Source: Ulota crispa (taxonomy: Eukaryota > Streptophyta > Bryopsida > Orthotrichales > Orthotrichaceae). Taken from it: a stretch of 64,000 nucleotides of DNA. Of this stretch, positions 2,348 through 63,888 are shown in pieces. The translations under genes were made by a program, and so were the position numbers. Under the pieces are notes generated by a model. That model did not search any database. It saw only the letters and a list, made by a program, of their open reading frames with translations, and had not been told where the DNA came from. The first letter of the stretch is position 1. Each line of letters opens with the position of its first letter. The stretch is taken from assembly GCA_963920765.1 (NCBI GenBank), contig OY987248.1:2671001-2735000 (forward strand), given 5' to 3'.

Positions 2348-3079
2348 ATGGAACCATTCTCAAAATGGATACAAGATCGTTTGGCCTTGGATGACAAAGA
2401 CAAACAGTTTGTCCTTATATCTACAGTGCATGGAGAGCTTCAAACTCGTTTGAGAGATGGAAGTAGGAAACGCAGAGGCCCCCATCCAGGCAAGGCACCA
2501 AACATTGAGAGGGGTTTTCTTGCGGGCCATGAATGCATTTGGAAAGATTACTTTGTCGACGAACTAGTTTTTACTCTAGAGATGTTCCAACGTCAATTCT
2601 AAATGCATAAGTCTCTTTTCTCCAAGATTCATGATGCTATTGTCAATCATGATTCTTAATTTTAGGAGAGAGTTGATGCATTTGGGCGGCCTTGTTTGTC
2701 TTCTATTTAGAAGATTATAGCCGCTTTGCGCATGTTTAGTATTGACATAGCAATGGATGGTGTTGATGAGTACATTTGCATTGCTGAGTCTATTGCTACT
2801 AAATCTTTTAAGAGGTTTGCTACCACTATAGTAGAGATATTTGGTCCAGAGTATTTGAGGCACCCTATTGCAGAGGATGTCTTGCACCAATTGCAAGTAA
2901 ACAAACTTCGTGGGTTTCTTGGCATGTTTGGGTCTATTGATTGTACCCATTGGGTGTGGAAGAATTGTCCAGTTGGATGGCAAGGTCAATATCAAGATAA
3001 GGATGGGAATAAGTCTCTAATCATGGACAAACAAAAACAAAACAATTTTTTTTGGTGTCAGGATGAAGTTCGTGGATGA
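2348..3079 (+). pseudogene. PIF/Harbinger-type nuclease relic, 3' truncated
   Basis: One reading frame, entered at ATG 2348, can be followed to about 3,020. It resembles plant PIF/Harbinger nucleases (DDE_Tnp_4). The frame includes VDEYICIAESIA, then FGPEYLRHP, and the strongly family-typical block GSIDCTHWVWKNCPVGWQGQY, whose Asp corresponds to the first catalytic acidic residue. It is interrupted by four stop codons (two TAA and two TAG, between about 2,600 and 2,715) without a change of frame. After about 3,030 the similarity ends, so the later catalytic Asp and Glu are missing and the protein is dead. It is relevant to the TTA/TAA-flanked MITEs at 21.1, 22.5, 35.9 and 63.96 kb, which have PIF-type ends and would need such a nuclease from elsewhere. 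Element termini were not located. Confidence 0.85.
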
Positions 3080-12977: not shown

Positions 12978-13111
12978 AGGTATGTATATCCATTCCCGAC
13001 CATCTACCCAATTCCGTCACTATGTACAGTGGTAATTTTAGAATTGAAATGACCACGATAGGTACGTAGTGACAAAATTGGGTGGATGGTCAAGAATGGG
13101 TATACCTACCT
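12978..13111. mobile_element. Near-palindromic MITE with AGGTA termini (AGGTA family), 134 bp
   Basis: The left arm (AGGTATGTATATCCATTC...) and right arm (AGGTAGGTATACCCATTC... inward) pair along most of the element, including TCTACCCAATT / TCCACCCAATT. It is flanked by TA on both sides. Its right edge overlaps the TTAA that starts the next piggyBac-type element. Relatives lie at 22.85, 34.31, 34.78 and 38.25 kb. Confidence 0.7.
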
Positions 13112-13887
13112 TAATCCCTAAAGGACCAAAGAGCCCAATATGGCCAAATGGGGTTTTTGAAGGTGTAAAAGTAGACAATAAAGGGGTTGCATGCTCAAGT
13201 TTTGGTCTGCCATTCAAGTCCAAATGGAGCTAAAAGTCTAGCAAAACTTTTGGATTGGCTTGTTGTTCCTTGAAGCTTTAAGATTTTGCACCCAAACATT
13301 TGAATTTACTATTTTTAATATTAACACTATTAGTGAGAGTGTACATAGGCATTGTACATTGCATTGTGGATGGAGGAATTTTGGATGGGATGTGTTGGAA
13401 GCCCACACTCCCATGTATAGGAGAGAAGGTTGGTGGTGTGTCACTTTTTTTCTCTTGGTTGGGCAAGATTTTTGTAGCTCTAAAGTAGTGAGCTAGCTAG
13501 AACCACTTACTTTGAATGACCATGAGTTTTGGAGTTTTTTCCCATTTGAGGAGTTTTTTTTTCCATCAAGTATAGCTAGACACGGTCTCATGGGATCAAC
13601 CTTTAGGTAATATTTTTTTTTGGGAAAAAATCACATCAAAGTCCAAAATCCACATTGTGAACTACTACCCAAATTAACAAACATGAGATTCTCAACGGTG
13701 GGGATTTTGCAGATTTACTTGGATTTAAAATCAGACTAGCCTTAAACTTTTGATTTATAGTTGGATATAGAATGACCGGTTTGGATTGTGTGAATACTTG
13801 TTTGGCTTTCTAAAAATTGAGGGAACGTGCTAAAGGTTCCATATTGGAGGTATGCTAAATTTTCTTAGCAAGACGCTTAGGGGTAAA
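13111..13887 (+). mobile_element. piggyBac-type non-autonomous element, about 777 bp (copy 1)
   Basis: It starts TTAA TCCCTAAAGGACC and ends, read inward, CCCCTAAGCGTC; the right TTAA has decayed to TAAA. Nearly its whole length recurs in opposite orientation at 52,220-52,997. Short open frames seen in both copies are conserved only because the DNA is, and no transposase motif occurs. Confidence 0.8.
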
Positions 13888-21549: not shown

Positions 21550-21896
21550 TAAATGTCGAAGAAAACGTCCGCCGACTCTGAAAAAAGATTATGTGATTTA
21601 GAAAAAAGTTTTTTTCATCTAATTTTTTTCAGGAGTGACCATAAACACGTGGTCCATCATGGAAAACAAAAAATTACCTCTTAAGATGTATTCATTTGTT
21701 TTTGTAACCCAAATTGTGATAAGATTCAAAAACATGGTGTTAGCTCCCAAGCTACCCTTCTTGCAATTTTCATGAAGGCACCATGCATTGTTCACTTTTC
21801 CAACTTTTTGAAGCAATACTACTAGTGCCCATGTGCAAAATGCTATAGACTGCTATAGGCCGGGCAAGCATTAGTGATCCATCCGTCTTTTAAGGG

Positions 21897-21900
21897 TTAA
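21897..21900. mobile_element. Solo piggyBac-type right end
   Basis: CTTTTAAGGGTTAA reads inward as TTAA CCCTTAAAAG, a piggyBac-type terminus. No partner left end was found within a few kb, so this is probably a truncated element. Confidence 0.4.
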
Positions 21901-22845: not shown

Positions 22846-23341
22846 AAGTAAGATAGCAGCATCCATAATCGTCAGATTAAGGCTTTTGAACATGATGATT
22901 ATTAAATAACATCTAGCAAATTATAAGGTCCTATTAGCAAGAGAAAAATGATGAGTCTGCACTTTCAAATGTATTATTTCAATACTATGAGAATAAGTTG
23001 TGAATTTCTAAAGAACCAACTACCATTGCACCTAGTAGTCTAGTACCAACACTAAGGTTTGTTTACATGTTGTACATCCTTGTAATTACATCTATTCACT
23101 TCCACACATTTTTCAAGATTCTAGAGGTGATGGTCATGCGTATAAAATGTACAATCACTACAATGGAGCATTGTCAATTTGGACATTTTTTGTTAATAGA
23201 TCAGTCTCATTTGGACACTTTTCTGTCAATTTTAACATGTTTTTGTCAAATTTTTGTCAATATGGACATTTTAGTCAATATGGATGTGTCACTGCTGATA
23301 GTTTTTCTTGTAATGAATGATGGTTATGGGTGTTGCTACCT
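22846..23341 (-). mobile_element. AGGTA-family element, about 495 bp
   Basis: Most of it is the reverse complement of 34,778-35,085, including a shared block around TTGTACATCCTTGT and CACTTCCACA. The right end reads inward AGGTAGCAACACCCATAACC. It begins at the TTA flank of the preceding MITE and ends inside the TTAA of the next element. Confidence 0.65.
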
Positions 23342-24270
23342 TAACCCCTAAAGGACCAAGCCTTTTTTATACCAAAATCACTAAACACTGCCACTTCTAA
23401 GAGGTTTAGAAAAAAAGGATTTTATGTTATGTTTTTGGGAAATCCAACCATAGGATCTTCCCCAAGACTAGAAGAGGTACTTGTGAGAAAAAAATCAGCC
23501 CATTCCAAAAGGAGAGGAGTGAGATATTTACATATGAATTGCAGAAAAAAGTTTTTTTTGCTGCTGCCCAAAAATTTTAGAAGGCTTTGACCACTCTTAG
23601 ATCAAAAAAATTGCTTTACCCAAAGTTGCACTTTATTTTTTCCATGTAGGAGATCAAGTTAGGTATGTGTGGGAGAATTTTCAAACCAATTGGAATTATA
23701 CAACACATGGAAATAACTAGTAAGTAAAAAGAAGTAGAGAATGACTCAAAACACTAAATTGTTAAGAATTTAATTATGAAAATGAAAAATGCAAATATCA
23801 ATAGTGATAATGATGTGATAAAAAATCTACTTCCTTTAGTTTAATTTTTTTTTCAAAATATTGAGTAAAATAAAGGACTTCAAAGTTTATTTTAGAGTAG
23901 AGATTCCATAACTGCTCGCAAACAAAAACCCCTCATAACTTTCATGTCATTGATTGAAATTGAATGATTCAAAGCTTTTCATGAATATAAAAAATCTCAA
24001 GAACCAATTTCAAATTTGTGTTTAAAAAAAAGTAATTTTCAAAGAAGCTTTGGGCTGCCCGGATGGGCAATCCTCCCCAAATTTTCATAAATTCATGCAT
24101 AACTTCTTTGTCAAATGTCAGAATGAAGAAAAAATTAGATGCCCATGTAGATCTTTGAAGTCTCCACCTTCAATAAAAGTCTTAGAAAATCACACAAAGT
24201 AGTTTAGCCATAGGTACATGCCTGAAGTTCAACATGTCCCCCAAAGGGACAACGGTCCTTTAGGGGTTAA
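23341..24270. mobile_element. piggyBac-type non-autonomous element, 930 bp
   Basis: Both ends read TTAA CCCCTAAAGGACC inward: a perfect 13-bp terminal repeat with intact TTAA on each side. The interior is AT-rich with no transposase motif. Confidence 0.85.
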
Positions 24271-24423: not shown

Positions 24424-24940
24424 TTGATTTCTATAATTGATTATGATTTTGAATAAATGGTTATACATGAAAAGTTGAGGCGAGAGCTGAGGGCATTTGA
24501 AAAGTATGGTGAGTTGTTGGCACGAATCTTATAATTGTACACAAGTTTTTGAAGAGAATATGACTAAAAAGGTGATAGCAAAAATCTACTTTGTTGTTTA
24601 GTCATTGGGGACACGCTTTTTTATTCTAATGGTAATCATTTGTGTTGCGATAAACCAATATTTATGATTGGTAATCAAAATCCAAGTTTTATGAAATCTA
24701 TAGTTCATTGAGTGTCTATTTGATTTCGTATGAAAAAATAACTATAGCTATTTCATTTAAGTAGTAAGCAATGTGGCTTAGTGTCAAGCAATGGTCCTTG
24801 AAAGATATGTTCATCCTAAATGTAGTGAACTTTATCCTATATTTTACTTGACAATTGATTGACTGATTATATTTTAAATGACCTTGGTAAGTAAAGGCGG
24901 CTAGCAAGCCAGGTGGGGTCTAAGAATGTTAAGGATTCTC

Positions 24941-27900
24941 TTAACCCATTAAGGACCATGGTTGATTTCAGGGGTGGGCCAGCCCTTTTTGGGTTTTAGG
25001 ATGGAATTGTAATAACTATTGAATGGAAGTGCCTACCATATATCTAGTCGTATGGATTGAATTGGGTTGCAGCAAATACAGTTTAGCACTGAAATTTTAG
25101 GCCAAGGCGGTTCATGAAGCAGCTTTTTTTTAACAAATCTCTTTGCTTGTATGCATTTGAGTATTTACAAAGGGCAAGCTCTACGGTCTAGCATATATTT
25201 CCTTACGAGGGTGTTTTTTAGGGCGCTCACAGAGCCATGTAGGCCTTCCTTTTGGGTCATTATGGGTCCCCATGTAGATCCCAGGCTCTTGGGAACGCAA
25301 CCTTGAAGTTCCCCACAAACCCCCCTTACACGTGCAAATGACATTGAGCTGAACTTGAGTAGTTGCCTCACAGGTTTAGCTAGGCTGCATCCACAACAAG
25401 CGAGGGGGGGGTGTTACACTGATCAATGTTTAGTTAGCCGGCATCCAAGTGTCTAGGATCACAAAGCAAACTCCAGCATGGCTAGTATTTTGCAACAACA
25501 TTGCGTTTTACAGTGAAGCAACCATGTGAAGTACAGTTCTAGGATCCGTTTAGCTTGGAATCCAAAGCAAGAAAATTTGGGCATGCAATGGCAATTCAAC
25601 CCTTGCTCCACTTGAACCACCAAAGGCATCAATTTTGCCAAATGTAACATGACGACTACAATGAAAAAACATATGTGTTCACAGTACCACACATAAGAGG
25701 GTCAAGATTGCTGGTACTCAATGCACTTCAAAATCTCTAGTTCTGCCGTAAGCACTCTAGAATGTGGCACACTACAATTCAAGGGTACTGCATAAGCATT
25801 TTGAAAATCCCGGGCAACATCAGCTATCACTCTATGATTCTAACAACAAACAATGATGCCGCATGTGCTGGGCGCTTTTGAAATCATCAAAAAAACTAGA
25901 TGTAAAGAACTAGACAAAGGTCTTCAAGGATAACTGCAGGTTTACTACGCTCCATGCCGATTTTGACGCTGACTACCATGGTCACACAAATGCGCCTCTG
26001 AACCTTGCAAACCAAGCTAAACACGGTCAGCCAACCAGGCATTACATGTACAATGTCCGGGCATGCAAATTCAAGCAGAAACATAAGCTCCAGGTATACG
26101 GCAATTGCCATGGTGAAAATTGAGAATTGCAACAACATCGGAGATGAAGGTCTTACTATTGCTTGGTAAGAACTGCCGACAGTGCTACATGCAATTTCCA
26201 CGTGAATGAAAGAGTGAGAAGCACTTCGATGTGCATAAATGCACAGTGTCGCACTGTGGGCACACGTGGAAAGTATGGCGCTTGCAAATGAAACATACTC
26301 CATGCAAGTTGGTCTTCTAAGGGTCGTGACCATAGCTCGGTTGACGTGGTCAAGGTGGGACATTCGGTAAGGCCAGACCAGCACTCTCCGCACCAACAGG
26401 ACGGTAACGTCGTCCCATGAGACTGTAGGCAACATGGAGCTGGAACTCTTTGTGAGTTAGAGGTCTCTCTTGCAAAGTCTTACAAGTTGCTTTGTGAATT
26501 GTGTAGGCGTTGGCAAGCCAAGAGTCAACGCAAAAAAAGTAGACTCGATGCCACCATTTCTTGGTCCCCAACTGTGTGCTATAGTAGGATCAGTTTTGAT
26601 CAGCAACGTCAACACCACCCATCATCCGGGAGTACAAGAGCTAGATAGGGGATGTGAGAACTTCAACAATATGCTGCCCAAATACTCTACTGGTGACCAT
26701 GCCGCCCGGCACCATCGGATCAATAGTTGTTGCAAGGAGACATATGGCCTTTGTATCCTGCCAAAGGATTGCAGCCATCCTCTTGTCTCTATGCACCCAA
26801 ATGTGAAGTGTCTTGCGTGGTTGCTCGTGCGTGATGCCCAAGCTTGTGGGAAAGCCCTTCTGCTGCATGCAAGCTGTTCCAACAGTGTAGAAACCATGAG
26901 AGAGCAAGTCATCAAACAAGTAGGGGGAGGTGAAGAAATTATCACAAGTTATGGTATACTAGTGCCCTTCTAGAGAAACCGTCAATCGACGGACCACCTG
27001 CCCCACCATGTCAATGTGCTGTGCAGCCAGTTCTCTAGGATATTTGTTGTCTTTGCCAACATAAATCTCCATCTTGTACACATAGCTAGAAATGGAGCAC
27101 GCCATTGTCCAAATCTTGATGCCGTGAGTAATAGGCTTAGTAGGCAGGTACTGCTTGAACGCTCAAAATTGCCCATTGTAGGCCATCATGCACTTGTGTA
27201 CAGTCATGTAAGGGGAGAGATTCCAAAAATGTTGAAACTTGCCCTTCACATGTTGAAGAATCCACTTGCATTTCCTAATTGGGTCATACAGTGGGCTCTT
27301 CGTGTCGGTGATGTAGTCGGTCCTCGAGGTCATATGCAAGCAGCGCAAAATATACTCAAACCGCCATCTAGACATGGTCTGCGCCACATTTGCACAAAAC
27401 AAAGTCCCATTCCCTCTACGCCAGTAATTTCAGATATAGGGTTGTCTCTTCACACCCATGAGGCAACAGATTCCAAAGAACTATTTGTAGTCTTGAGGTG
27501 TAATTTCCTTGGCTGCAGGTTCACCGCCCTTTCGCTTCCCTATTTTTTTATTGACAAAATTAGTGTAACTATTACTTTCTCGGACAATCTTGCGTTGAAG
27601 TGCCTCATTCCAGAAAAGGGTGAAACACTCCATGGGCAACAGGAGAACGTTTGTAGGAAGATGCTAGCTTGGGCCCGCTGGCTTTCCAATGAATGGATGC
27701 TGGCCTTGAAGGGACCATGACCTAGCGTGCTAGTTCACCTCGGAATACCTCTCGTTGAGGTCATAACTAAAAGGTTTTGGCCCAAATGGATAAACTTCCA
27801 ATTCTCCCAGAAGCAGCATGGAGTCATCCTTGTTCACATCAACTGAGCTGGCACCATTTGACAAGACACCGTGGTCACTCCCCAAATCCGATAGGGCTGG

Positions 27901-30412
27901 ATCCTAGTCGTGGTCCAAGTCACTATCCTCCAATTCCCAACTAGGCAAATCTCCTTTTTTTACACGTTGCCGGTTACTGGCCTGTGGTACATAAAACAAG
28001 CCATTTTCATGTCAAAACTGGAATTGATCGTCTTAGTTGGGCCACCCAAGAGGGAACCCTACCCAATTACCCAATACTTACGATCTTCTAACATACAATA
28101 TGTTCCAGGGCTCAAAATTCCAAATATGCATGTGCAATATGGCAAAGTTTCACAACTAATTTGAACATAGAGTACATCACAATAACCTGAAAATAGATGA
28201 TTCACTAAATTTGACAGAAGGGAAAGGAAAATTGTGATGATTTGTAGTGCACAGTGATATTGAAATCTTATTCTCCTACACAAACCACGTAAAAGACATG
28301 TGTACAAAACTAGGAACAAAGAGACTAGGAGCACAAACCTGGACGACACGAGCAGGCGCCAGCACTTCAGAGACAGCTCCATTAGCAGCTCGATGAACCT
28401 CCTCCGCGTCTTGGCAAGCACTAGCACAAAGCGTTTGGACACCCAGGTAAGTGCCAAAGTCGACCTCCAGCATGTCAATGCCATCTGATCCAAACTCTTG
28501 CGCTAGCACCGTTCCAAAAGCGAATGGGCAGGGAATGTTGATCACTTCCCCGCCCCAATGGAGGTCCCGGAGCAAGACACAAACGTATCGTAATTGACCC
28601 AACCTTGCCCTTGTAATCGATGGAATGGACGTAATCAAATTCTGCAACATGGACGCAAAAATGTCGTCTTTGCAAGCAATACTTGTTGGAGAAATGGTTG
28701 GAAAGCTCCCCTGACCCCACCTCCTCCTCGACCCCGTTGCCCCCCTTTGTTGCATCCTCCGCCTGGAGCTGACCTTGTAGCCACGCCAATGGCATTATGA
28801 AAGTTGCTTGTGTTGACATTTCCTTCCACCCGTATTCCATCTCCCTTAATTGGTACTTTGTCACTAGTTAAGCTCGGAACAAGCCTCTGCCGTTGCATGT
28901 ATTTTTGCTTTTGCTTTGGCGGAGACAAAATTATTGCATTTCTTCTTGTTCAGATTCCCACCTGCCCAGGATATGTCTTGCAAACATATTTGCGCTTTTG
29001 CTTCAGGACTTGCCCATTACTGCCAAATGGAAGGGGGACGTTTTCCTTCTCCATTCTGGCAAATTCCAAGGAAAGCAATTGAATTGCGTTGGAGTCCACT
29101 TGCAGCGTCAACTGCGTCAATTTCGTTGCGGGCCTTGTCTAAAACGCATCTGCTCCGACACCATCAACACAAACCTCTTTGGCAAGTCCAAGTGTAGGAG
29201 CCCAGACGTCATGGATAAACGACTTGGTGCAAGTTGGCGTGGAGCTGCCATGGGAATCCATTAGGGCTCCCTTCTTCTCGTTGTCGCCGCCAACCAAGCA
29301 AATTTGCAGAGTGCCGGTAGAAAAGGTAACGGAGCTATGCTCTAGACAAGTCCTCCAGCCTCTTGTACCCAAGTGCACCAGCCGGAATGGGATGGAGAGT
29401 GAGGTATGTTTGATCAAGTAAACCGACTAGAACTTGGCGCTTCTTAGAGGAGAATCGGAGGCTTGTGGCCCATGTGGACAAGATTGTGACAGTGCGGGCA
29501 AACTCTTGAGGAGGCGGCGAGGATTGCGGCCACACATATCCCTCGCGGCGTTGCCTCTATGGCTTGCTTGTGCCTGCCATTGTCTTGTAACCATAGTAGC
29601 ACGCAAGGAACAAACCATAAAACTTGAAATCGGCTCAATGAAGACTCTTACATGTCATTGACGGTCGTGGGCGGCTTGCATCCAATGTTGGCCTCATTTC
29701 CCTCTATGCTCCTGTGTATACAGATTGTGCAGGAGGTGCCAAATCTTGGGCGAAACCACAATGAGTCCCAATCGTTCCAGCTAGAAGAAAATTTGCAGCA
29801 CTAAACAATAACTGTCACACGTAAATTGGGCTCTCCATTTCTTGATTTTGCTCAACCACCTAAATCCTCAAAAACTAAACCCTAACTCCGGTAGTAGGAC
29901 CTCCCAATACCCTAGATTGCTCTTCACTATAGATCGTAGTTCCCAAAGCTGCTTTTGACCATGGCGTGCTATGCAACAATGGGGAGAGCCTTAGCTTCAA
30001 AACAAACAACCATCTGATCCGCCCTTCCCACACAAGTTTTGGATGTAGAGAATGTCGAGCTGGCGCCTCTTGACAGGGAACGTCCCCGTTCTTGAAGAGA
30101 GTTTCCCGACCTCCTATTGACACGCGTCAGCAGTGCAAAGACTCGTAAATTGTACGCAACCCCATCTTTCACACTTGCACACATCTTTAGTTACCAATTC
30201 GTGTATTCTCTGCCAGCAGTTTTTTGGTTTTTTTAACTTTTTGTCCACGTGCCAGCTCAGATTCCCCTCATTCTTGGCCCAAAGTCTGCAGTTTCTAATT
30301 CCCCATCCACGTCCCTTTTGTCAAACTAGCAAATTCCTAAACATTCTCTGCCAACCTAGCAAAAAGGGCCAGAATCAACCACAAAGTGGTCAACTAGTCC
30401 TTAATGGGTTAA
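24941..30412 (-). mobile_element. Full-length piggyBac element, 5,472 bp, inactivated
   Basis: The termini read TTAA CCCATTAAGGAC inward at both ends, with intact TTAA at 24,941 and 30,409. Subterminal words also match (GGTTGATTTC near 24,962 and, inward from the right, GGTTGATTCT). The element contains a minus-strand transposase relic. About 1.7 kb upstream of the conserved transposase region (28.7-30.4 kb) holds several open fragments that I could not identify, possibly its first exon and promoter. Confidence 0.9.
26185..28755 (-). pseudogene. piggyBac transposase with ten premature stops and a changed catalytic Asp
   Basis: The main exon, 27981-26185, is 599 codons in one unbroken phase but carries ten premature stops (six TAG, four TGA, no TAA). 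Motifs in order: LPTNVLLLPMECFTLFWNEA, MSRWRFEYILRCLHM, then TVHKCMMAYNGQF where the first catalytic Asp and its neighbour Glu are His (codon 262) and Lys. CDNFFTS follows with the second Asp (codon 347), then GVDVADQ with the third (458), KKWWHRVYFF, and a C-terminal Cys-rich zinc-binding domain (CFICK, CPQC, CTSKC). Spacing matches the piggyBac DDD family. A probable upstream exon lies at about 28755-28339: it ends in phase at donor CCAG|GTTTGTG and joins acceptor CACAG|GCCAG at 27,981. The protein cannot be made intact and lacks one catalytic acid. Confidence 0.9.
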
Positions 30413-32356
30413 GCATCTATTCCAAGCAATGGCCAAATTTGACACACCAGCAATTATAAATTACATATGTTTTTAAAGAGCTCTTTAACTTCATGTTTAT
30501 CACCCTTATTTATCAATTGTGTGCCATACCATAGTCAATTGATCAATCATCAATTCAAATGCAAGATAGAACTTACTAAACTTTAGATGAACAAAAATAT
30601 CAAGGACCATTGCTTGACACCTTAAGATTGCATGTCACAAGAACATTTTGAGGGGCTTGAAACATTTGTCATTTAAGTTTGACATATCAATCTTTCATCA
30701 AGTTCCAAAGCAAGTGCTCTTATCAGCACTTTGCACTACATCCCCCATCTATGCAAGTCTCACCTCAATGTTAGATCCAAAAAAACATGAATATTTCATT
30801 CAAAAATATTGTTGGGACTTGGGCTAAAGGCTAGGTTTAACAAAATGGTTGATCCAAATCCCACCCTCTTTGGCACCAAATCCTCCAAAAAAAGCTATGA
30901 GGTAGGATTGTAGGTAAAATGTAATTCACCCAAATGTGGGACGTTGTGTGGAACCCCAAGTTGCAACTTGCAATTTTACACCAATCAAATTCTCAAGTTT
31001 CTCAAATTTTTTTTCAGATTTCAGTGGAACTTGGGACATAGTATGAATCGCCCATTAACCCCTAAGCGCCCTAGTGCCCCATATATGGCCTCCTATTATT
31101 TTCAATCCCTATTTTGAGGGACTAGGTCTAACTTTTTGGTCTTACTTTACACTATAATTATGAAGGCATTCAAGTTGTCCATGCCAATGGATTACTGGCA
31201 AGGAAAGCCAAATGTTGTACAAGTGCTACAAGAGATTTGATTGGGTGAAAACATCATATGGGAAGTGGTGGCATCGTACAAGGTGTGTTGGCAAGTAGCG
31301 TTTTACAGGCTACAACCAATCAATATCCCTTGCAAGCTTCCTTGTGTAAGCTTTGTGGTAGTGGGAAAGTTGTCGGCAAGGGTTCAAGCATGTTCTAGAC
31401 CCTTATTATGGCAACCGTCACCAACTAGGCTGGTCATTGTTTTATGTGCAATAGCGATTTGAAGCCCTAAAACTTGACATAAAAAGAAGTGTAATCTTCA
31501 ATAATTTATAAGTGTGTGCGTTCACATCTAATCTTGCTACTCACAAAATTTGAGATGAATCTGGGACTTATAGAATTTTGTAAAAATTATCAAATAGCAG
31601 CTACCTACCAAAAAATGAGATTTTGTCATTACATGTTGTTTGATCAAATGTTATAATCTCCCATCTCTTGCAATGAATTGTTCCCAAAATTTGCAAACCA
31701 TTTTCTAAGTAGCTGCTCCACTACTTTCAGTGGTCACTTTTTGTGGATCATCCGAGATACAATGCATCAAAGTGGTCGGTCTCCAAAAACCCTGATTTTC
31801 GTGGAAACGGCACCCCTGAGCTCCAAATTATGGCCCCTAGTTCAAAGTGACTCAAGTACAAAAGTCACTTGTGAGAGGGTACCGACTGGCCAAGTGCTCC
31901 GGGGTGAAGGCAATCTTCACTTAGATTTCCTTCACAAGAAGAGAACTCCCAACTGCATGCGCCTGTACCACCACGCCAGCAGTTCCATTGAAGACAACCC
32001 TCTGCCACATCACGCCGCCCTTGTCACTTGACTCACTTCCACACAAGCTTCATCAAAGGCACTGCAACTCTGCAACGAACTCCGAATCCTCAGCCCATGC
32101 TCTCATTTATTCCCCCTCTTTAAAAAACACCTTCAAACCACATGTTGCAAAATACCCGCTAACTTAATTAACACATGTTCAGAACAGCAACAATTACAAA
32201 ACCCTTGTGCTCTGTACCAGTAGCAGCAGCAGCATGGACAATTATGCAACACCATTAATTCTCTTGCCAAGTATAAGTATTCGTAAGCATGCAAGGAATT
32301 CCGAAACCTTCTTTCCTTTGAGTCAAAAGCCTCTGTCATTCCATGATGACGTAGAG
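30413..32356. other. Intergenic region with element fragments
   Basis: It contains a segment (about 30,780-31,050) homologous to 33,360-33,560 and ending in the GGCGATTCATAC terminus related to the 11.24-kb MITE. A solo piggyBac-type left end follows at 31,055 (TTAA CCCCTAAGCGCC). An open frame at 31,678-32,031 has no recognisable motif and is not annotated as a gene. Confidence 0.5.
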
Positions 32357-32448: not shown

Positions 32449-35409
32449 ATGAGTGCTGAGCTTGTGCTTCGGATGGGACTTGAAGCGGGATTTGCGTTGC
32501 TAACGTTGCTCATATTCTTGAACTTTGGCATGACAGATGCTCGTGAGTGTTTAGGTGCATTTGCGTGACTGGTGTTGTTCGGGAGATTTTGCTAATTGAT
32601 CGGAGTAAGAGAGAGAGGGTAATATTATGGAAAAATTTCATGGATACACCTGAAGTATGTAATATTTTCATAGATACCCCTGTTTTTTATAAAAAAATTC
32701 ACAAATACCCTTGCACCATAATTTTCAGGCGTTTGTTTTGCTGTGCATGTCACTTCCCTTTGTCCTTTGTTGCATGTTTTTTTTGTTTCATTACATTCAT
32801 TGTTCCAACATTGGTCAAGAAGAAAGTACAAGCACAACAAATAAATGCGTAAATTTTTTGATCGAATGATATTTGTGAAATTTCTGAAAAAGCAAGGTAT
32901 CTATAAAAAATATTGCAAACTTTAGGGGTATCCATAAATTTACCCTAATATTATTGAAGTTTGGAGTTTTTTATAGAAATGTTTGAATGATACTTGGTTG
33001 TTGTGCAGAAGGTGAAGAGGTGCAGAGGGTTTCTATTGGAGCTCCGATCCTTACTGTTCTGGGGGTGAAGTATAATTTGAGGGCGGTTCAACCTCGTTTG
33101 AAGGTACGTCAATCTCGCAAGCCAGACATACATACAAATCAGGCTTTCGAATTCCTTTGTGTATTCTTGTGCAACAGTTCAGCTAAAAAATCTGCTTGAA
33201 AACTCATTATAGTGGTGGATTTTAATTTAAAGACGAGCTGCTGCTTATGGCTATCCATAACCGGGGTTACTCCTGAGGCCGGTTCATATTACGTCCTACG
33301 TACCATATGAACGAGTCCCTCACGATTCAAGCTTTGTTGGGCTATCCAACGAGTACTATAGAAAGTCATGAACATTTTCAGCAAAAATATTGATGGGACT
33401 TACGTTGGAAGTTGAGTTAACCAAAATGGTCTACCCAAGTCCCACCTTTTTGTTGCCAAAAGTTCCAAAAGTGCTGCCATGTTGACAAGATGCAATGAAT
33501 TTGTAAGTGAGATAAAGACTCGGGAGTCGGGACATAGTGTGAACTGCCAAGTCCCAACTTTCTACTCTCAATCTATGGGATTCTTACTCTCAATCTATGG
33601 GATTCTTAGATAGTGAGACGTAGAACATAGTGCAAACCGCTCTAAACACAATATTCATCAATTTGGGAAAAAAAAACCTAAGTTGGAGACTTTTGGATTT
33701 TATGTTCATCAAAGATTATTCAGTAAAATACTCTCTTTGAGGATGTTAAAACTCAAACGTACCAAAATTGAGTTTTTTCTCAAATTAATGAATATTGTGT
33801 TTCTAACAGTGAGTGGAGGATACTACTGTATTTGCATAGCATAAGTAAGCGAGACGCGCATTAGGGGAGAGATTTAGCCAAACCTTTTCTGTAACTAGGG
33901 ATGAGCTTTCTCCAAATCTAAAACGAAATACTTAAGCAGGGGAGACAATAGTAAGTCCACCGAAGTAATCAACCTCAAATCCATTCACAAATGCGAAGTT
34001 CGATCTCAAGTTCTGCTTAGTACCCGCAAGCTACTGATTCAAGAGCCAAGATGAGTTGCTGCTGCTTCTGCTGCTCAGATCTGGTCCGTAGATAATGCTT
34101 GAGCAAGTTACAACTGACACCATATTAGGTAAATTGGGAAAAACAAAGGGACCATTTTGTACTTTGTCTTAATCCCACATCAATAAATGGAGGCATTATT
34201 ATTGCTCAAAAGTTGTAATCACTGAAGTTTTTGGAGGCAATCACTGAGACTTCACTATGTACAAGAAAATATACGCTTGTTTTTTATGATATGTTAATAT
34301 ATACATAAGGTAGTCACACCCATAAGCGCCGTGTCCCCATGGGCACCACTTGTCACAATTAGGGACTACTAAATACAAAATCAAATGGTTATGTGTGAGA
34401 AAGTGATGGTTATGGGTGATGAAGTGATGGTTGTGGGTGATTGCATGACCGTTTTGAGTACCCATCTCACTATTTTAGAACCAATCAGCCTTGCTTTTAA
34501 CATCTCTTACACATTGTTCTTACAATTTCAGTGATTTTGGACTTTGAAAAATCTTTGTGAACAAATGCTTGCAATTGGAACCTTGAAATTGATGCCAATA
34601 TTTTTGGTTTCCACTTCCTAACTTACAATATTTTTTTTCAAAATTAGTCAATTGTTTTACCTACTCCAAAACCCTTATTTCCACGCTTATGGGTGCGCCT
34701 ACCTTAATGGCAAAAATAGTGAAAGTCCCAAAATGTATTATTTTTCCCAATGTTGCAAAATTGAAGCCAGAGTTTTAAGGTAGGAACATCCATAAGCGTC
34801 AGTGTCTCCACAACCGTCACCTTTGAAATCTTGAAAAATTTGTGGAAGTGAATAGATGTAATGACAAGGATGTACAACATGTGAACATGAATTCTTAAAA
34901 GTGATTATGGGTGCAATGACAGTTTGCTCTTTAAATATTCAAAACTTATTCTCACAATATCCAAATAATACATTCAAAAGTGCAAACTCATTTTTTTTTG
35001 TTCCTAATAAGATCCTATGCTAGCTGTTTATTGATACTCATCATGTTCAAAACCCTTAGTTTGATGCTTATGGGTGTACATACCTTTACTTGTAGTAATG
35101 TGCTTGCGTGTTGTGGATGTGATGGTGCAGCAGAGAGACAGCAGGGGAGACGTTGTGGAATCTGCGGTGGCAATGATGGTGTTGCAGCAGCAGGCACCAG
35201 TGCTTGATCAGTTGTTGGGACGGAAGTCGACGAGGCGAGGACTGATCGGGTCGGCGGCGCCAGAGTGTGGGCACACGTGTGGGGCGTGTTTGCCGTGCAA
35301 GTTGGAGGTGGTGAGTTACGATTGCAGCGAGGGCCTGGAAGCGCATGCCGAGGCATGTCCGATGGGGTATCTTTGCACCTGCCACGGCATGTCCTTCCCC
35401 ATCCCTTGA
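32449..35409 (+). CDS. EPF-type secreted cysteine-rich signalling peptide precursor
   Basis: Three exons on the plus strand, 32449-32542, 33009-33103 and 35131-35409, join in phase to give 155 aa. The first exon encodes a signal peptide with a hydrophobic core (FALLTLLIFLNFG, about 15-27). The mature region is C-terminal: GSAAPECGHTCGACLPCK, then VSYDC, EACPMGYLCTCHG and a final FPIP. Its eight cysteines are at 109, 113, 116, 119, 128, 139, 145 and 147. This is the EPIDERMAL PATTERNING FACTOR fold signature with the extra cysteine pair of the EPF1/EPF2/EPFL7 type. Basic residues before it (GRKSTRRG) suggest proteolytic release. Known members are apoplastic ligands of ERECTA kinases and TMM that space stomata. 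Donors are strong (GTGAGT, GTACGT); the last acceptor (GGTGCAG) has a weak pyrimidine tract, and 35,134 is an equally in-phase alternative. Both introns carry MITEs. Confidence 0.87.
32620..32953. mobile_element. MITE with TAATATTA termini, about 334 bp, in EPF-type intron 1
   Basis: The left end TAATATTATGG...ATTTCATGGATAC and the right end, inward, TAATATTAGGG...ATTTATGGATAC form about 40 bp of imperfect inverted repeat that continues as CCCCTAAAGTTTGCAATATTTT on the right. It occupies most of the first intron. Confidence 0.7.
33646..33803. mobile_element. Short MITE, TTTGGGAAAAA family, about 158 bp
   Basis: The left end ACACAATATTCATCAATTTG and right end, inward, ACACAATATTCATTAATTTG are followed by runs of A and GACTTTTGGATTTT. 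It lies in intron 2 of the EPF-type gene. Other copies or halves are at 34.12, 38.58, 39.19, 43.14 and 44.78 kb. Confidence 0.7.
34121..34259 (+). mobile_element. TTTGGGAAAAA-family terminal arm, 139 bp
   Basis: It starts CATATTAGGTAAATTGGGAA and is the inverted counterpart of 38,578-38,719. Matching words include GGACCATTTTGTACT and GGCAATCACTGAGACTTCAC. It lies in EPF-type intron 2. Confidence 0.65.
34308..34704. mobile_element. AGGTA-family MITE, 397 bp
   Basis: The left end AGGTAGTCACACCCATAAGC and right end, inward, AGGTAGGCGCACCCATAAGC are flanked by TA on both sides. It lies in EPF-type intron 2. Confidence 0.75.
34778..35085. mobile_element. AGGTA-family MITE, 308 bp
   Basis: The left end AGGTAGGAACATCCATAAGC and right end, inward, AGGTATGTACACCCATAAGC form its termini. 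The interior matches 22.85-23.34 kb in reverse. Its right end lies only 45 bp before the EPF-type exon 3 acceptor. Confidence 0.75.
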
Positions 35410-35585: not shown

Positions 35586-35825
35586 TTAACCCTTAAAGGA
35601 TCGAGGAGCCCTTTGCAGTCAATATAGTATTTAGTATTTTCTTGTATTTGGAATGCATCCACATCTTTATTCCATTTGAGATCAACAAAGAAGTTAGAAT
35701 ATAGATCAATGCGGTTCTAATGAGTTAATCAACATCCCAAATTAAAACTTTTTCTTGGTAGCAAATGCCAATTATACAACACCATATTTACTATGTAATA
35801 TGTAGAGCGGTCCTTTAAGGGTTAA
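35586..35825. mobile_element. piggyBac-type MITE, 240 bp
   Basis: The ends read inward TTAA CCCTTAAAGGATC and TTAA CCCTTAAAGGACC, with TTAA intact on both sides. It lies 177 bp after the EPF-type stop codon, probably in or near its 3' UTR. Confidence 0.8.
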
Positions 35826-37284: not shown

Positions 37285-39092
37285 ATGCCAGTGCTGGGAG
37301 AGAGCGAGAAGGCAAGGTTACAGAGAATATTCGAGTGGAGCAACAGAGGAATCGGCATACCAGAACCGAACAGATGGCAAGACAACGACCAAGCCACCAC
37401 CGAGGAAGTGCAACTCATCAGGAAACAAGTGCTGGGGCGAGGGGCGTTGCGGAAGCAGAAGCGGTGGTTGGACATTTTGGCGAACGAGGTGGTGGAGCGA
37501 GAGACGGTGCTCAAAGTGATGCGAGCCGAGGGGCAGGAGCACTTGTCCAAAGACAAGCTCCGCCACGAGATCCACGACCGCATCAAGCGCATGAAGGAGA
37601 TCCAGAACAGCATCGCCCGCCAGGAACGACAGGAGAAGCAGAGCCAGATGGCGGAGCTCGTGGATCCCACCAAGTGTTGCCAGGCCACGTACAACGCTCA
37701 ACGGGACAAGAGCCACCACCAACACCATCTTAGGTGACTTGATAAAAACAATACATTCTCGGGACTTTCACTATTTTTGTCATTATGTACAACTTAGCAT
37801 ATTACTAAAAAACAAGAGAATTGATATGTGCACACCGGGGTTGACATTTGCACACCCCCCTGGGGATAGATTTGTAACATCAACCTGAATTTTAGAATTT
37901 TAAATTCAGATTTGGACTTAGAGACCATGATTTAGTATAGAAACATTAAAAAAAAAAGTCGCAATTAAACAACATCCAATGAAAAAGCTTATCTTATTTA
38001 CGAACAAAAGTAAAAGTAACACTTTTTCTCCTAGCTAAGCTTTTTCATTGAGTGTTGTTCAATTGCAACTTTCTTTTATGTTTCTAGGCTAAATCATGAT
38101 ATGTAAGTCCACATCTGAATTTGAAATTCTAAAATTTAGGTTTTTGATGTTAGAAATCTATAATTTATCTCCAAGGGGGTGTGCAAATATCAACCCCGCG
38201 GTGTGCACATATCAATTCCCAAAAACAAACATGCACTTTCTTATACAATAAGGTAGGAGTGCTCATAAACCGACCATCTAAGGGCTGAAACTGAATTTTG
38301 GGGAGGTGAAACTTCTTGAAATATTTTTCAGTAAATTTTCCTCAAAAGACAAGAGGAATTAGCATCTACCCCAAGTTGTTTCATTTATTTTGGAGCTTTG
38401 GGGAATTAGTTATTAAAATTTGAAGTTGAAGTGACATAGGGTTCCAAAATTGTCCACCTCCTCAAATGTACATTTTCCGTACATTGTTGAAGCCTGTGAA
38501 AAACAGCATGTACAAATAGAGTACATTTGAGAAGGTGAACGGTTTTAGAGCCTGAGCAAAATATGAGCTTCCTACCTTGGTGAAGTCTTAGTGATTGTCT
38601 CCAAGAATTTCAAATGATTACAGCTTTGAGCTATAGCTATGCCTGCATTTACTGTATGTATGTAAGACAAATGTGGAGTACAAAATGGTCCCTCCGTTTT
38701 TCCCAATTTACCTAATATGCTGCGGTGACCACAGCAAGTCCACTACCGACACCACCAACAAGTCGACCAGTGGCTTGTCGTCCCAGTCCAAACGCTTGCT
38801 GGAACATAACCTCAACACCTCCGCCGACAAGCCTGCTGCCAATCACCGTCGGTACAAACACTCCCTTAGCCCTCCCACCTTGTTCCCCCTCAAAAGTTCC
38901 TGTGGCAGTAGCAAAGTTGGGGAACAACAATCCAAAGAAAACCATCACCACCACCACCGACACAAGGAGAATCACCGACACCATGCTGAGAAGCGACCCC
39001 AAGAGAGTGCCAGCCTCAAGTCATCCAGACATCACAAGACGAGCTGTAAAAGTGAAAGTGGACTCAAAGCCAAATCTGCATCTCGACCATGA
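37285..39092 (+). CDS. Unknown protein, coiled-coil-like front and His/Lys-rich tail
   Basis: Two exons, 37285-37733 and 38735-39092, join in phase (AG|GTGACT donor, CCACAG acceptor) to give 268 aa. I do not recognise a family. Residues 1-140 are highly charged and probably helical, with segments such as LRKQKRWLDILANEVVERE and KLRHEIHDRIKRMKEIQN suggesting a coiled coil. The second exon is low-complexity: Ser/Thr/Lys-rich, then a His cluster (NHHHHHRHKENHRHH), then basic to the end. Evidence that it is real: GC-richer, codon-like sequence on both sides and an exact phase match across an intron filled with three mobile-element pieces. There is no signal peptide or membrane segment. The poly-His tract could bind metal or direct nuclear speckle location, but that is speculation. 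Confidence 0.6.
37817..38220. mobile_element. GGGAATTGATATGTG-family MITE, about 404 bp
   Basis: The left end GAATTGATATGTGCACACC and right end, inward, GGGAATTGATATGTGCACAC extend as long palindromic arms with inner words AAACCTAAATTT and CAATGAAAAAGC. A second copy is at 63,443-63,853. It lies within the intron of the unknown gene. Confidence 0.8.
38251..38577. mobile_element. AGGTA-family MITE, 327 bp
   Basis: The left end is AGGTAGGAGTGCTCATA; the right end, inward, is AGGTAGGAAGCTCATA. Inner arms pair around TCAAATGTAC / GTACATTTGA. It abuts the next element with no spacer. Confidence 0.65.
38578..38719 (-). mobile_element. TTTGGGAAAAA-family terminal arm, 142 bp
   Basis: It is the inverted partner of 34,121-34,259 and ends CCCAATTTACCTAATATG. 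It finishes only 16 bp before the splice acceptor of the unknown gene's second exon. Confidence 0.65.
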
Positions 39093-52219: not shown

Positions 52220-52997
52220 TTAACCCCTAAGCGTCTTGCTAAGAAAAATTTAGCATACCTCCAATATGGAACCTTTAGCACATTCTCTCAATTTCTAGAA
52301 AGTCAAACAAGTATTCACATAGTCCAAACCGGTCATTCTATACCCAACTATAAATCAAATGTTTTGAGCCAATTTGGTTTCAAATCCAACTACATCTACA
52401 AAATCCCCACCATTGGGAATCTCATGTTTGTTAATTTGGGTAGTAGTTCACAATATGGATTTTGGACTTTGATGTGATTTTTTCCCAAAAACAATATTAC
52501 CTACTGGTTGATCCCATGAGACCGTGTCTAGCTATATTTGATGGAAAAAAAAAACTCCTCAAATAAGAAAAAACTCCAAAACTTATGGTCATTCAAAGTA
52601 AGTGGATCTAGCTAGCTCACTACTTTAGAGCTACAAAAATCTTGCCCAATCGAGAGAAAAAAGGTGACACATTATCAACCTTCTCCCCTATACATGGAAG
52701 TGTGGGCTTCCAGTCCATCCCATCCAAAATTCCTCCATCCACAATGCAATGAACAATGCCTATATACACTCCCACTAATAGTTTTAATATTAAAAATAGG
52801 AAATTCAAATGTTTGGGTGCAAAATCCAGAGGCTTCAAAGAATAGCAAGCCGATCCAAAAGTTTTGTTGGACTTTTAGCTCCATTTGGACTTGAGTGGCA
52901 AACCAAAACTTAAGCACGCAATGCCTTTTTTATCTACTTTTACATCTCCAAGAACCCCATTTGGCCATATTAGGCTCTTTGGTCCATTAGGGGTTAC
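52220..52997 (-). mobile_element. piggyBac-type non-autonomous element, 778 bp (copy 2)
   Basis: It is the inverted copy of 13,111-13,887. The left end is TTAA CCCCTAAGCGTC; the right end, inward, is CCCCTAATGGACC with a decayed TTAA (GTAA). Similarity runs along the whole element, including TATAGCTAGACACGGTCTCA-type words. Confidence 0.85.
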
Positions 52998-57180: not shown

Positions 57181-59062
57181 CTAAAATGTGCCACTATGGT
57201 GGTGCATTTTCATGTAGCATCCACATGTGTAGCACATCCATTGAAATGAGCATAGTGCACAAAAAATATTTGTTCTTTGCTTGCACACAATGCATACTCG
57301 ATGCAGCTGACTTTTTTGAGGACAATGAATTTGAGGAACGTCCTCCTGTAATAGTGAAATGGTTGCTTTCTGCCCCCTCCCAACTCCTTGTCAATGCCTT
57401 GCATAATGCCATGATGAAGTTGAAATGTGATAATATCTTGTTCTCTTGTCCTTTTTCTTCAAAATCTCCTTGTGGAGAATCCACATGTTCACAACACTAG
57501 TATCAATGAGAAAGTAGAACAATCAATGCCACCATTTATGAAAACGCACTTGGCAAGAATAAGAATCGTGGAGTTGATCCGCTATGTCCACTCCATGCAT
57601 GAGAGTGGTATATTCCAAGTGGACCGGTGATGTTTTAATTTTATGGATAGATCCACCTACTCGGCATGGAACTTCCACCACCTCACATGGCAAAGCCAAA
57701 GGCAATGAGCTAGTAGATAATAGGAGGACCAATTTTTTATCCATCCACATCACTACACACATTTTTTGGGAGTCATGCATTGTCCACTGTAGATTTCCAT
57801 GTGGAGACTTCTTGAATCTTTTTTGGTCCTTCACAAAATCAGGAAGCCCTATGCAGTTGCTTCAAAGAGTGCCTATTGCATATGTACCACTCCTTTCCAA
57901 ATTGCAAAATAATTCTACACTAGTAAAAAATTATCCATTACAACTACATGCCCCAAACCCTCCAATCCTTGAAGTAATGTCTCAACCACCCTTTGCCCCA
58001 CCTTTGATTCTCCTTTCTTGGACTCAAAGGCAACCATAGTTTCAATAGATGCTCCACAATATACATCAAAGTTGCTAACAAAACGTGTCTTTGAATCGGC
58101 AAGGCACCAAATTTTGATACCCCATTTCTCATGCTTATTAGGCATGTATTATGACACAAGACAATACACTCCTTTGTAACAAACCATCATCTCATCAATG
58201 GTGATTTTCTCCCCATTGTTTTGTAATGCCTTGCAACGATCACGTATCTCAGTCAACAACCACCTCACTTGATTCACTTTGTCATAAGATGGAGATGTAG
58301 AATCCATGCACATCAAGGATGAGTTGGAGATGTGAAGGCACTTTGATAAAAGGGTAAATGGTTGCACGGAAGAAGCTGGGATATAATGTGGCAATGAAGA
58401 AATGGTTCTGATGTTTGCTAATACAAGCGTATACTAGGAAGTTTCTTCAACCCCATATATAAAGATATTGCAATGAATGTCTTCAATTTGCTCACATCCA
58501 TTGCTTTCCACCCATTGCCACCATGAGTATATGTCTCATAATCATCATTGCATGTAGGGTTTATAATCCCACTCTTCACCCTCCTCTGTTTCTCAGTTGC
58601 ATATTTGTTTGTTTCAAAATAAATATGTCTCACTATTGCAATGGACCAGAACTTGCCAAATAAGTGAAGAATAGAAGGGACTCGATCCCATTCTTGAGCT
58701 AAGCCATGGAACGGCCCACTGAATGATTTCACAAAAGGGTAGAAATTCATGTACCTCTAGGTCCATGTCCTTGGGGCATAGTCTTCTTTTATTTGGTTTG
58801 TCCCTTCCAATGCAGCTAGTATATGATCATGGTCATCAACCATTTCAATTTGGCCATATTAACTCGACCCATGGACTTGCGCTACCATCATGACCTCGAC
58901 CTCTGCCTCTACTGCCATCATGACCTCAACCTCTGCCTCCGCTGCCATCATGACTTCAACCTCTGCCTCCATTGCCATTGTGATCTCGACCTTTGCCTCC
59001 ACTGCCATCATGACTTCAACTGTTGCCTCTATTGCCACGCTTGGGCCTCCTTGCCGCTGCAG
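57181..59062 (-). pseudogene. Second piggyBac transposase relic, several frameshifts
   Basis: Recognisable order on the minus strand: an acidic repeat segment (59,034-58,886), DHDHILAALEGTNQIKEDY, then about 58,750-58,418 with LKTFIAISLYMGLKKLP. The first catalytic Asp is in ITIDEMMVCYKG (about 58,170), the second in VVVMDNF (about 57,920) and the third in HGVDIADQL (about 57,575). These are followed by FHKWWH, NMWILHKE and a C-terminal Cys-rich domain (CIVC, CALC, CYTCGC, HHH) ending at 57,181. All three catalytic Asp codons survive, but the frame shifts at about 58,405, at a T-run just after MDNF, and at least twice near the Cys-rich domain, and several stops intervene. Sequence similarity to the 26-28 kb transposase is low outside the motifs, so it is a different lineage. 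No TTAA termini were found. Confidence 0.85.
58886..59034 (-). repeat. 30-bp tandem repeat, five units, encoding an acidic decapeptide
   Basis: Five units of about 30 bp (GACCTCTGCCTC core on the plus strand). On the minus strand they stay open and encode MMAVEAEVEV-like decapeptides in phase with the transposase relic. Confidence 0.75.
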
Positions 59063-63442: not shown

Positions 63443-63851
63443 GGGAATTGATATGTGTACCACACCCTTTCAATTATTGTATCACACCCTAGAGTAAAAT
63501 TTAGATTTCTACCATCAAAAAGCTGAATTTGAGACTTTTAAATTTAGATTTGGACTTACAAACCATGATTTAGTCTAGAACCATAAAAAAAAGTTGTAGT
63601 TCAACAACACCCAATGAAAAAGTTTAGCTAGGGAGAAAAGTGTTACTTTTACTTTTATTTGTAAAAGAAGATAATTTTTTTCATTGGGTGTTGTTAAATT
63701 GCAACTTTTTTGTGGTTTTAGACTAAATCATGGTCTCTAAGTCCAAATCTACATTCCAAATTCCCAAATTTAGTTTTTTGATGGTAGAAATCTAAATTTT
63801 ACTCTAGAGTGTGGTACAGTAATTGAAAGGGTGTGGTACACATATCAATTC

Positions 63852-63853
<2 letters not shown>
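63443..63853. mobile_element. GGGAATTGATATGTG-family MITE, 411 bp, inside a (TA)n tract
   Basis: The termini GGGAATTGATATGTGTACC inward at both ends are perfect for at least 19 bp, with arms continuing through CACACCCTTTCAATTA. It is bordered by (TA)n on both sides (63,419-63,441 and 63,854-63,884), consistent with insertion at TA. Its relative is at 37,817-38,220. Confidence 0.85.

Positions 63854-63888
<35 letters not shown>

What the first reader, a model, noticed from the sequence alone, without database searches (positions are those of the whole stretch)
24941..30412. Complete piggyBac element in a plant genome
Matching TTAA-flanked ends, a co-oriented transposase with all family motifs and the C-terminal zinc-binding domain make this a whole piggyBac element. 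Established knowledge: piggyBac is common in animals but scarcely reported from land plants. Two distinct piggyBac lineages in one 64-kb plant window would be notable.
Basis: partly seen in the sequence, partly recalled or inferred. Interest (0 to 1): 0.75.

Follow-up and report, generated by a model that had tools for sequence, protein, structure and literature searches.

The report
Dead piggyBac transposon in a plant
This is the complete but long-dead remains of a piggyBac jumping gene in a spore-bearing plant's genome, one of about a hundred relatives there, alongside what look like thousands of short elements with similar ends, so a transposon type best known from animals appears to be an old resident of this plant.

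Summary
The observation mostly holds. Window 24941-30412 is a 5,472-bp element with TTAA at both ends, identical 12-bp inverted repeats, and a minus-strand piggyBac transposase (PF13843, E 3.9e-62) with a C-terminal Cys/His pattern. "All family motifs" is wrong: the first catalytic Asp is His (Asp in 32 of 34 other copies read) and the frame has 11 stops, so this copy is a fossil.

It is resident: the unnamed 274.8-Mb genome gives 120 PF13843 rows on contigs C1-C11, six EPF matches (one 4.8 kb away) and radial-spoke-3 matches, pointing to a non-seed land plant. The second relic (57202-58771) is real and of another lineage.

Beyond the finding: 34 of 35 loci of this lineage carry a conserved coding module 1.4-3.8 kb upstream (dN/dS 0.2-0.5; no Pfam or PDB match). 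A ~412-bp TTAA element is an internally deleted form. The end of a 930-bp TTAA element, TTAACCCCTAAAGGACC, occurs 8,154 times (reversed control 0). Not shown: an empty site, transcripts, structure, or which enzyme moved the 930-bp family. A true piggyBac in an unusual host; the ancestral gene probably has a variant architecture.

The parts
24941..30412 (-). whole piggyBac element, 5,472 bp including TTAA at both ends; transposase reads on the minus strand
24941..24956 (+). TTAA plus terminal inverted repeat CCCATTAAGGAC (transposase 3' side); this 16-mer occurs 130 times genome-wide, reversed control 0
30397..30412 (-). matching inverted repeat plus TTAA (transposase 5' side); the terminal ~216 bp (30197-30412) gives 35 dispersed rows of that size
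   Evidence: 40 of 285 candidates scored
26185..27981 (-). transposase exon, broken by 11 in-frame stops (first base on the minus strand: 27906, 27732, 27666, 27483, 27432, 27165, 26961, 26643, 26592, 26352, 26319), no frameshift
   Evidence: exon start inferred from a possible CAG acceptor
27196..27198 (-). codon of the first catalytic residue: His (CAC) where 32 of 34 other copies have Asp
26206..26298 (-). C-terminal cysteine-rich pattern CxxC-CxxC-CxxxC-H
29353..29580 (-). upstream conserved coding module A (76 codons; begins with Met in the 4 distinct copies that align there; one stop in this copy)
28339..28536 (-). upstream conserved coding module B (66 codons), followed by GT at the aligned end in 4 of 5 distinct copies (the fifth, L043, has CAG/GTAAAT three bases earlier)
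27982..28338 (-). inferred intron between module B and the transposase exon (GT...CAG; phase 0 on both sides in this copy, not in L015)
   Evidence: no transcript seen
23341..24270 (.). 930-bp TTAA element without coding capacity, TIR CCCCTAAAGGACC; 40 full or nearly full-length copies scored genome-wide, this one included
35586..35825 (.). 240-bp TTAA element, TIR CCCTTAAAGGA(T/C)C, just downstream of the EPF frame
13111..13887 (.). 778-bp element with CCCCTAA-type ends, copy 1 (left TTAA kept, right mutated)
52220..52996 (.). 778-bp element, copy 2, inverted, 90% identical (TTAA kept at 52220, mutated at 52996)
57202..58771 (-). second piggyBac relic, a different lineage; no convincing TTAA-flanked inverted repeat found around it

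Best explanation
The element is a decayed but end-to-end complete piggyBac transposon that inserted by cut-and-paste at a TTAA site in the nuclear genome of a non-seed land plant. Shown here: both ends, the transposase family, decay by stops and loss of the first catalytic Asp, membership in a lineage of about 35 loci, and 120 piggyBac transposase rows genome-wide. Inferred: in life, the ancestral element made a spliced transposase with an upstream module; the enzyme bound CCC-type inverted repeats, cut at TTAA and re-inserted at TTAA. Internally deleted derivatives (a ~412-bp family keeping 216 bp of one end and ~38 bp of the other) and probably larger TTAA families such as the 930-bp element were moved in trans. 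This copy can no longer make an active enzyme.
For: TTAA and TIR at both ends. PF13843 E 3.9e-62. Copies descend from a coding lineage: transposase dN/dS 0.09-0.23 in the longest non-saturated piece of each lineage relative (L005 and L011 saturated; short pieces up to 0.42). 120 PF13843 rows, about 116 loci, on C1-C11; 116 of 528 candidates scored. Lineage: 35 further DNA rows, 34 loci. The exact 16-mer end occurs 130 times, control 0, including both ends 5.5 kb apart at C6:14250317-14255832 around a lineage transposase. The 412-bp family shares 216 bp of the right end (74.5%) and 37-39 bp of the left end (79-81%) in the 2 copies compared. TTAA at 20 of 20 ends of 10 copies of the 930-bp element, with differing flanks (10 of the 39 others, taken from the best-scoring). 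TTAACCCCTAAAGGACC 8,154 times, control 0; that is 85% of the 9,597 CCCCTAAAGGACC. In L015 two elements abut at a single TTAA-derived TCAA, and in L021 two candidate elements share one TTAA. EPF present; radial spoke 3 present.
Against: No empty site was found: 0 of 71 rows of the joined-flank search spans the junction, with 40 of 484 candidates scored, so TTAA as a target duplication is inferred for this insertion; held sequence gave none for other elements either. The zinc domain misses its Pfam cut-off. The TIR of the 930-bp element is close to, but not the same as, that of any whole transposase copy I held, so its mover is not identified.
Confidence: 0.93

Rival explanations
1. Contamination or chimera: the element comes from an animal or fungal contaminant joined to plant sequence.
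For: piggyBac is known mainly from animals (recalled; the papers treat animals).
Against: 120 PF13843 rows on C1-C11, 34 other loci of its own lineage, dispersed end-sharing elements, and an EPF gene 4.8 kb from the element on the same contig.
Confidence: 0.02
2. Domesticated host gene: the transposase-like frame serves the plant, and the ends are incidental.
For: dN/dS below 1 among copies.
Against: Eleven stops and loss of the first catalytic Asp in this copy; perfect TIRs with TTAA; purifying selection among dispersed copies is what an active transposon lineage leaves.
Confidence: 0.03
3. The TTAA short elements (930 bp, 778 bp, 240 bp) belong to another TTAA-using superfamily such as Kolobok and only resemble piggyBac at the ends.
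For: TTAA is also the target of other superfamilies (recalled). No whole transposase copy with exactly CCCCTAAAGGACC ends was held.
Against: CCC-type ends a few bases from those of whole piggyBac copies (CCCATTAAGGAC, CCCCTTGAGGACT, CCCCTAAATGCCC); the 412-bp family directly shares sequence with this element. Other TTAA transposases were not searched for.
Confidence: 0.2
4. The upstream modules are a second, separate gene of the element and not N-terminal exons of the transposase.
For: In L015 module A begins a 210-codon open frame of its own; the stretch between the modules evolves at dN/dS 0.46-1.0; the splice phase does not match in L015.
Against: GT at the aligned end of module B in 4 of 5 distinct copies and a phase-matched CAG before the transposase in the window copy.
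Confidence: 0.35

Closest known systems
piggyBac of Trichoplusia ni (transposase structure 6x67; organism of that entry recalled)
   Same: TTAA ends, CCC-type inverted repeats (recalled for T. ni), DDD transposase (E 2.3e-23), C-terminal Cys/His domain
   Different: 5.5 kb against 2,472 bp (length from PMC10140906, passages); inferred multi-exon gene with an upstream module that has no PDB match at E up to 5; this copy dead
piggyBat (structure 9c0f; Myotis lucifugus)
   Same: closest solved relative by sequence (E 1.4e-25)
   Different: the two animal references group together, apart from the 32 plant sequences (support 0.967; with only two references this says little)
animal piggyBac clades A-F and Pokey of PMC10813416 (passages read)
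   Same: TTAA target; TIR 5' motifs CCCAT and CCCTT, both found here
   Different: animals only; that survey set MITEs aside
PiggyMac and piggyBac cysteine-rich domains, PMC8086355 (passages read)
   Same: DDD core followed by a short cysteine-rich domain
   Different: PiggyMac is a working domesticated ciliate protein; this frame is a pseudogene

Membership tests
piggyBac superfamily | TTAA at both ends as target duplication | tested here: met
   TTAA at 24941-24944 and 30409-30412. That it is a duplication is inferred: no empty site found
piggyBac superfamily | short inverted repeats beginning CCC | tested here: met
   CCCATTAAGGAC, 12 of 12 identical; CCCAT is one of the motifs listed in PMC10813416 (passages)
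piggyBac superfamily | DDE_Tnp_1_7 transposase domain (PF13843) | tested here: met
   211 bits, cut-off 22.4, positions 2-349 of 349
piggyBac superfamily | catalytic Asp triad | tested here: not met
   First Asp is His in this copy; the second (CDNF) and third (GGVDVADQ) are kept. In its relatives it is met: first Asp in 32 of 34 other copies, three twin loci counted twice, exceptions L002 (Asn) and L043 (frame lost). This lowers the claim of activity, not of descent
piggyBac superfamily | C-terminal cysteine-rich domain | tested here: inconclusive
   Residue pattern complete; zf-Tnp_2 12.4 bits against cut-off 24
autonomous, active piggyBac | uninterrupted transposase frame | tested here: not met
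   11 in-frame stops
piggyBac-type MITE (412-bp family) | both ends of a transposase-bearing element, interior deleted, TTAA flanks | tested here: met
   L034 and L035: 216 bp of one end and 37-39 bp of the other, TTAA both sides
piggyBac-type MITE (930-bp family) | moved by a piggyBac transposase | not testable with these tools
   TTAA and TIR type fit; mover not identified

The most novel reading that the evidence does not exclude
In this non-seed land plant piggyBac is a diversified, long-resident superfamily with several deep transposase lineages. One lineage evolved a spliced transposase with a conserved upstream module unknown to Pfam and the PDB, and piggyBac enzymes drove a burst of thousands of TTAA miniature elements, making piggyBac a main source of short dispersed repeats in the genome.
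Probability: 0.5. Interest if true: 0.68.

Novelty: new variant of a known kind. Interest (0 to 1): 0.52.

Why it matters
piggyBac is a favoured seamless-excision tool in animal genetics, and the papers I saw mention plants only in passing. A land plant with about a hundred transposase loci, several lineages and apparently thousands of TTAA elements would move piggyBac from curiosity to major player in part of the plant kingdom. It would let one ask whether it came down from early green plants or arrived by transfer, and would give a natural plant-resident set of ends and enzymes to compare. The upstream module, if an exon, is a testable new part of a well-studied enzyme family.

Tried and rejected
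Palindromic insertion site: the flanks form a 90-bp inverted repeat (74%), which looked like an older element split by the insertion. The joined-flank search showed instead that each flank matches a dispersed ~216-bp repeat, in opposite orientations; none of 71 rows spans the junction. Rejected.

Empty sites elsewhere, in held sequence only: joined flanks of 5 window elements gave no hit reaching more than 5 bases past the junction; for those of 24 candidate TTAA pairs with long enough flanks, none spanned by 21 bases or more on the right. An insertion inside a 930-bp-type copy in L027 and one inside a 412-bp-type copy in L036 show no TTAA junction.

TIRs of the second relic: 480 TTAA pairs tried, none convincing. 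The relic is not among the 120 rows, which shows that list to be incomplete.

Stops as a methylation-decay signature: relatives have Trp, Gln, Arg, Cys and other codons at the 11 stops, too mixed to argue one cause; not claimed. The rows count some loci twice; one search leaves out 8 locus ids as duplicates.

Uninterrupted transposase: of 35 sequences read none is shown to be whole in one frame; L012, L013 and L016 have no stop in the aligned parts but fall into several pieces, which may be frame breaks or introns.

Structure of module A: alignment A1 made, but structure prediction was busy at all six tries.

Literature: seven searches in an open-licence library; I saw only the rows listed (3 to 30 per search, of up to 2,517 papers found) and none was about piggyBac elements of a land plant. 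Two papers recalled as relevant (Bouallegue 2017; Yuan and Wessler 2011) are not held, so priority is not settled.

Corrected on re-check: 13, not 12, of the 17 facing pairs are 903-963 bp long; the lineage has 34 other loci, not 35; module B has GT at the aligned end in 4 of 5 copies, not 4 of 4; C11's length was not seen.
Full report
What was checked. The finding claims a complete piggyBac element at 24941-30412 of a plant window, with a transposase bearing all motifs, and a second lineage nearby. The ends are exact: TTAA followed by CCCATTAAGGAC at 24941 and the same inverted at 30412. Of 868 TTAA pairs around the transposase this is the best, with 12 consecutive identical bases; the next five listed have runs of 3 or fewer. 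Over all 21,811 TTAA pairs 100-15,000 bp apart in the window only four reach 13 of 16 matches or a run of 9; two of the other three have the same kind of end (23341-24270 and 35586-35825), and the fourth, 44784-44910, is a palindromic element with unrelated ends. The 16-mer with up to 3 mismatches occurs 8 times in the window, against 0.76 on average and at most 4 in 100 shuffles.

The transposase lies on the minus strand, about 27981 to 26185. Read with X at stops it matches PF13843 from position 2 to 349 of 349 at 3.9e-62, and by sequence alone it matches the solved piggyBat and 6x67 transposases. It carries 11 in-frame stops and no frameshift. The first catalytic Asp is His. In a residue table of 35 sequences (the window copy, the second relic and 33 fetched loci, with three twin pairs among them; 8 further locus ids left out as duplicates), 32 of the 34 others have Asp there; the exceptions are an Asn (L002) and a frame break (L043). 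The second and third catalytic sites are kept. The C-terminal pattern CxxC-CxxC-CxxxC-H is complete in the window copy, though the Pfam finger model stays under its cut-off. So 'all family motifs' fails at a catalytic residue, and the copy is dead.

Where it sits. The window is C7:2671001-2735000 of an unnamed 274.8-Mb assembly in 157 contigs. A PF13843 search of that assembly gives 120 rows, all above the Pfam cut-off, spread over contigs C1 to C11; four loci give two rows, so there are about 116 loci, and twin loci are counted. Only 116 of 528 candidates were scored, and the window's own second relic is not in the list, so the number is a lower bound. EPF, a plant peptide family, gives six rows, one at window 35245-35400, 4.8 kb from the element. 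Radial-spoke-3 gives four rows, three of them close together on C2; by established knowledge this points to flagellated sperm and, with EPF, to a non-seed land plant. Ten contigs of 15.8-41.4 Mb and a C11 of unseen length would fit a moss karyotype; that is a guess. Cyclin H rests on motif-like exons at 18.3-18.8 kb; database support is weak. The spread and linkage speak strongly against contamination.

Its own lineage. The transposase region has 35 further DNA rows genome-wide at 65-76% identity, in 34 loci. The nearest whole relatives are at C6:14250317-14255832, with the identical 16-mer at both ends, and at C8 (L015), whose start is TTAACCCATTAAGGATC and whose other TTAA has become TCAA, directly followed by a shorter CCCCTAAAGGACC element. 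The window copy's exact 16-mer end occurs 130 times (70 forward, 60 reverse; reversed control 0 and 0). A search with the right 2.3 kb gives 42 rows (40 of 285 candidates scored), 35 of them short matches to the terminal ~216 bp. Two of these, read in full (L034, L035), are 411-412-bp TTAA elements whose first 216 bp match the right end (74.5%) and whose last 37-39 bp match the left end (79-81%): internally deleted derivatives. A third, L036, is the same with a further insertion.

An upstream module. Translated comparison of the element with other copies showed protein-level conservation well upstream of the transposase. Module A (window 29353-29580, minus) begins with Met in the four distinct copies that align there and reads like ...GYxxPxxxxxxQxFAxxxTxLxxWxxxxxxSxxKxxxLLGLLxxTYLxLHPIPxGAxGY.... 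A genome search with the L015 version gave 39 rows; taking off five second pieces leaves 34 loci, and all 34 have a lineage transposase on the same strand 1.4-3.8 kb downstream, while 34 of the 35 lineage transposase loci (window included) have the module. Nei-Gojobori dN/dS is 0.22-0.49 for module A, 0.21-0.31 for module B where not saturated, 0.46-1.0 for the stretch between them, and 0.09-0.23 for the transposase in the longest non-saturated piece of each lineage relative (L005 and L011 saturated; short pieces up to 0.42; some rows are one copy under two locus ids). Module B is followed by GT at its aligned end in 4 of 5 distinct copies; in the fifth (L043) a CAG/GTAAAT lies three bases earlier. 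The window copy has a CAG that would join module B in phase to the transposase; in L015 the phase does not match. Neither Pfam nor the PDB matches module A. I read this as N-terminal exons of a spliced transposase (about 65%) or a second gene. No transcript was available, and no structure could be predicted.

Other lineages and the second relic. The relic at 57202-58771 is 23-31% identical to the first in three pieces, matches PF13843, keeps its first Asp and has no convincing TTAA-flanked inverted repeats. In a tree of 32 plant sequences and two animal references it falls with L012, L004, L027, L003 and L008 (support 0.998), away from the main element's lineage (branch support 1.000); the two animal references group together (0.967), which with two references says little about origin. 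Its best open stretch finds 150 rows, itself and members of all lineages included, the nearest at 70% (150 of 314 candidates scored). Other transposase copies have TTAA-flanked ends such as CCCCTTGAGGGCT/CCCCTTGAGGACT (L022) and CTCCTAAATGCCC/CCCCTAAATGCCC (L013).

A TTAA short-element burst. The 930-bp element at 23341-24270 has 39 other full or nearly full-length copies at 86-89% identity among the 40 candidates scored of 9,378. In 10 of these 39, taken from the best-scoring ones whose match starts at the first base, 20 of 20 ends have TTAA, with different flanks. The 17-mer TTAACCCCTAAAGGACC occurs 8,154 times exactly (4,072 and 4,082; reversed control 0 and 0), which is 85% of the 9,597 occurrences of CCCCTAAAGGACC (reversed control 3). 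In the first 100 listed places 17 neighbouring pairs face each other within 2 kb, 13 of them 903-963 bp long, and one pair faces away (the listing is cut and ends with forward sites only). So thousands of TTAA elements with piggyBac-like ends probably exist. Whether piggyBac moved the 930-bp family is likely but not shown.

How it works. Shown: ends, transposase family, decay, family context. Inferred from the known biology of piggyBac: a DDD transposase cut at the CCC ends, released the element with TTAA overhangs and inserted it at TTAA, leaving a TTAA on each side. Not shown: an empty site. The joined-flank search found none.

What is known. All papers were seen as passages only. PMC10813416, PMC10140906 and PMC8086355 name plants among hosts without detail and give TIR, TTAA and domain rules; PMC10794571 lists PiggyBac among plant superfamilies; PMC4438587 lists it among superfamilies found in all its taxonomic groups, which speaks against total novelty in plants; PMC6890710 lists 1,230 PiggyBac pieces totalling 122 kb in a fern, and PMC8319324 one 75-bp hit in a grass. 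PMC10619864 uses 'piggybacking' only. Among the rows listed by seven searches I saw no paper about piggyBac elements of a land plant, but two papers likely to bear on this are not held.

Verdict. A real, whole, dead piggyBac element; a member by ends and domain, failing activity tests. The host and scale are unusual, and the lineage carries a probable new upstream part, so I place the lineage as a variant of a known kind.

Noticed in passing
23341-24270: 930-bp non-coding TTAA element with 39 other full or nearly full-length copies scored and an end 17-mer present 8,154 times in the genome.
   Followed up: yes
35586-35825 and 35245-35400: A 240-bp TTAA element lies about 180 bp past the open frame of an EPF peptide gene (PF17181, E 9.1e-10); a possible influence on it was not examined.
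   Followed up: partly
13111-13887 and 52220-52996: Two inverted 778-bp copies, 90% identical, with CCCCTAA-type ends and one intact TTAA each.
   Followed up: partly
44784-44910: 127-bp palindrome (87% self-complementary) flanked by TTAA with unrelated ends (GTAAATTGGGAAAAAA); related pieces at 39.4, 40.4 and 43.2 kb and in L021.
   Followed up: no
37818-38218 and 63413-63884: Two related large palindromes (79% and 84% self-complementary) of about 400-470 bp.
   Followed up: no
2711-3079: Fragment matching the Plant_tran transposase family (PF04827, E 4.8e-18), of PIF/Harbinger type by recall.
   Followed up: no
5427-6719: Exons of a TBC-domain RabGAP gene on the minus strand (PF00566, E 6.7e-21 for two open frames joined with X).
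   Followed up: no
24781-24870 and 30531-30620: Inverted copies of a dispersed ~216-bp repeat flank the element on both sides, about 70 and 120 bp outside its ends.
   Followed up: yes
21885-21900: One more TTAACCCTTAAAAGAC end on the minus strand, its 340-bp neighbourhood 76% identical to a stretch of L016; the other end was not found.
   Followed up: partly
L012 and L013: Inverted twin loci on C2 about 15 kb apart with identical piggyBac hits and no stop in the aligned parts: a segmental duplication or an assembly feature.
   Followed up: no
58855-59037: Short array of 30-bp repeats next to the second piggyBac relic.
   Followed up: no
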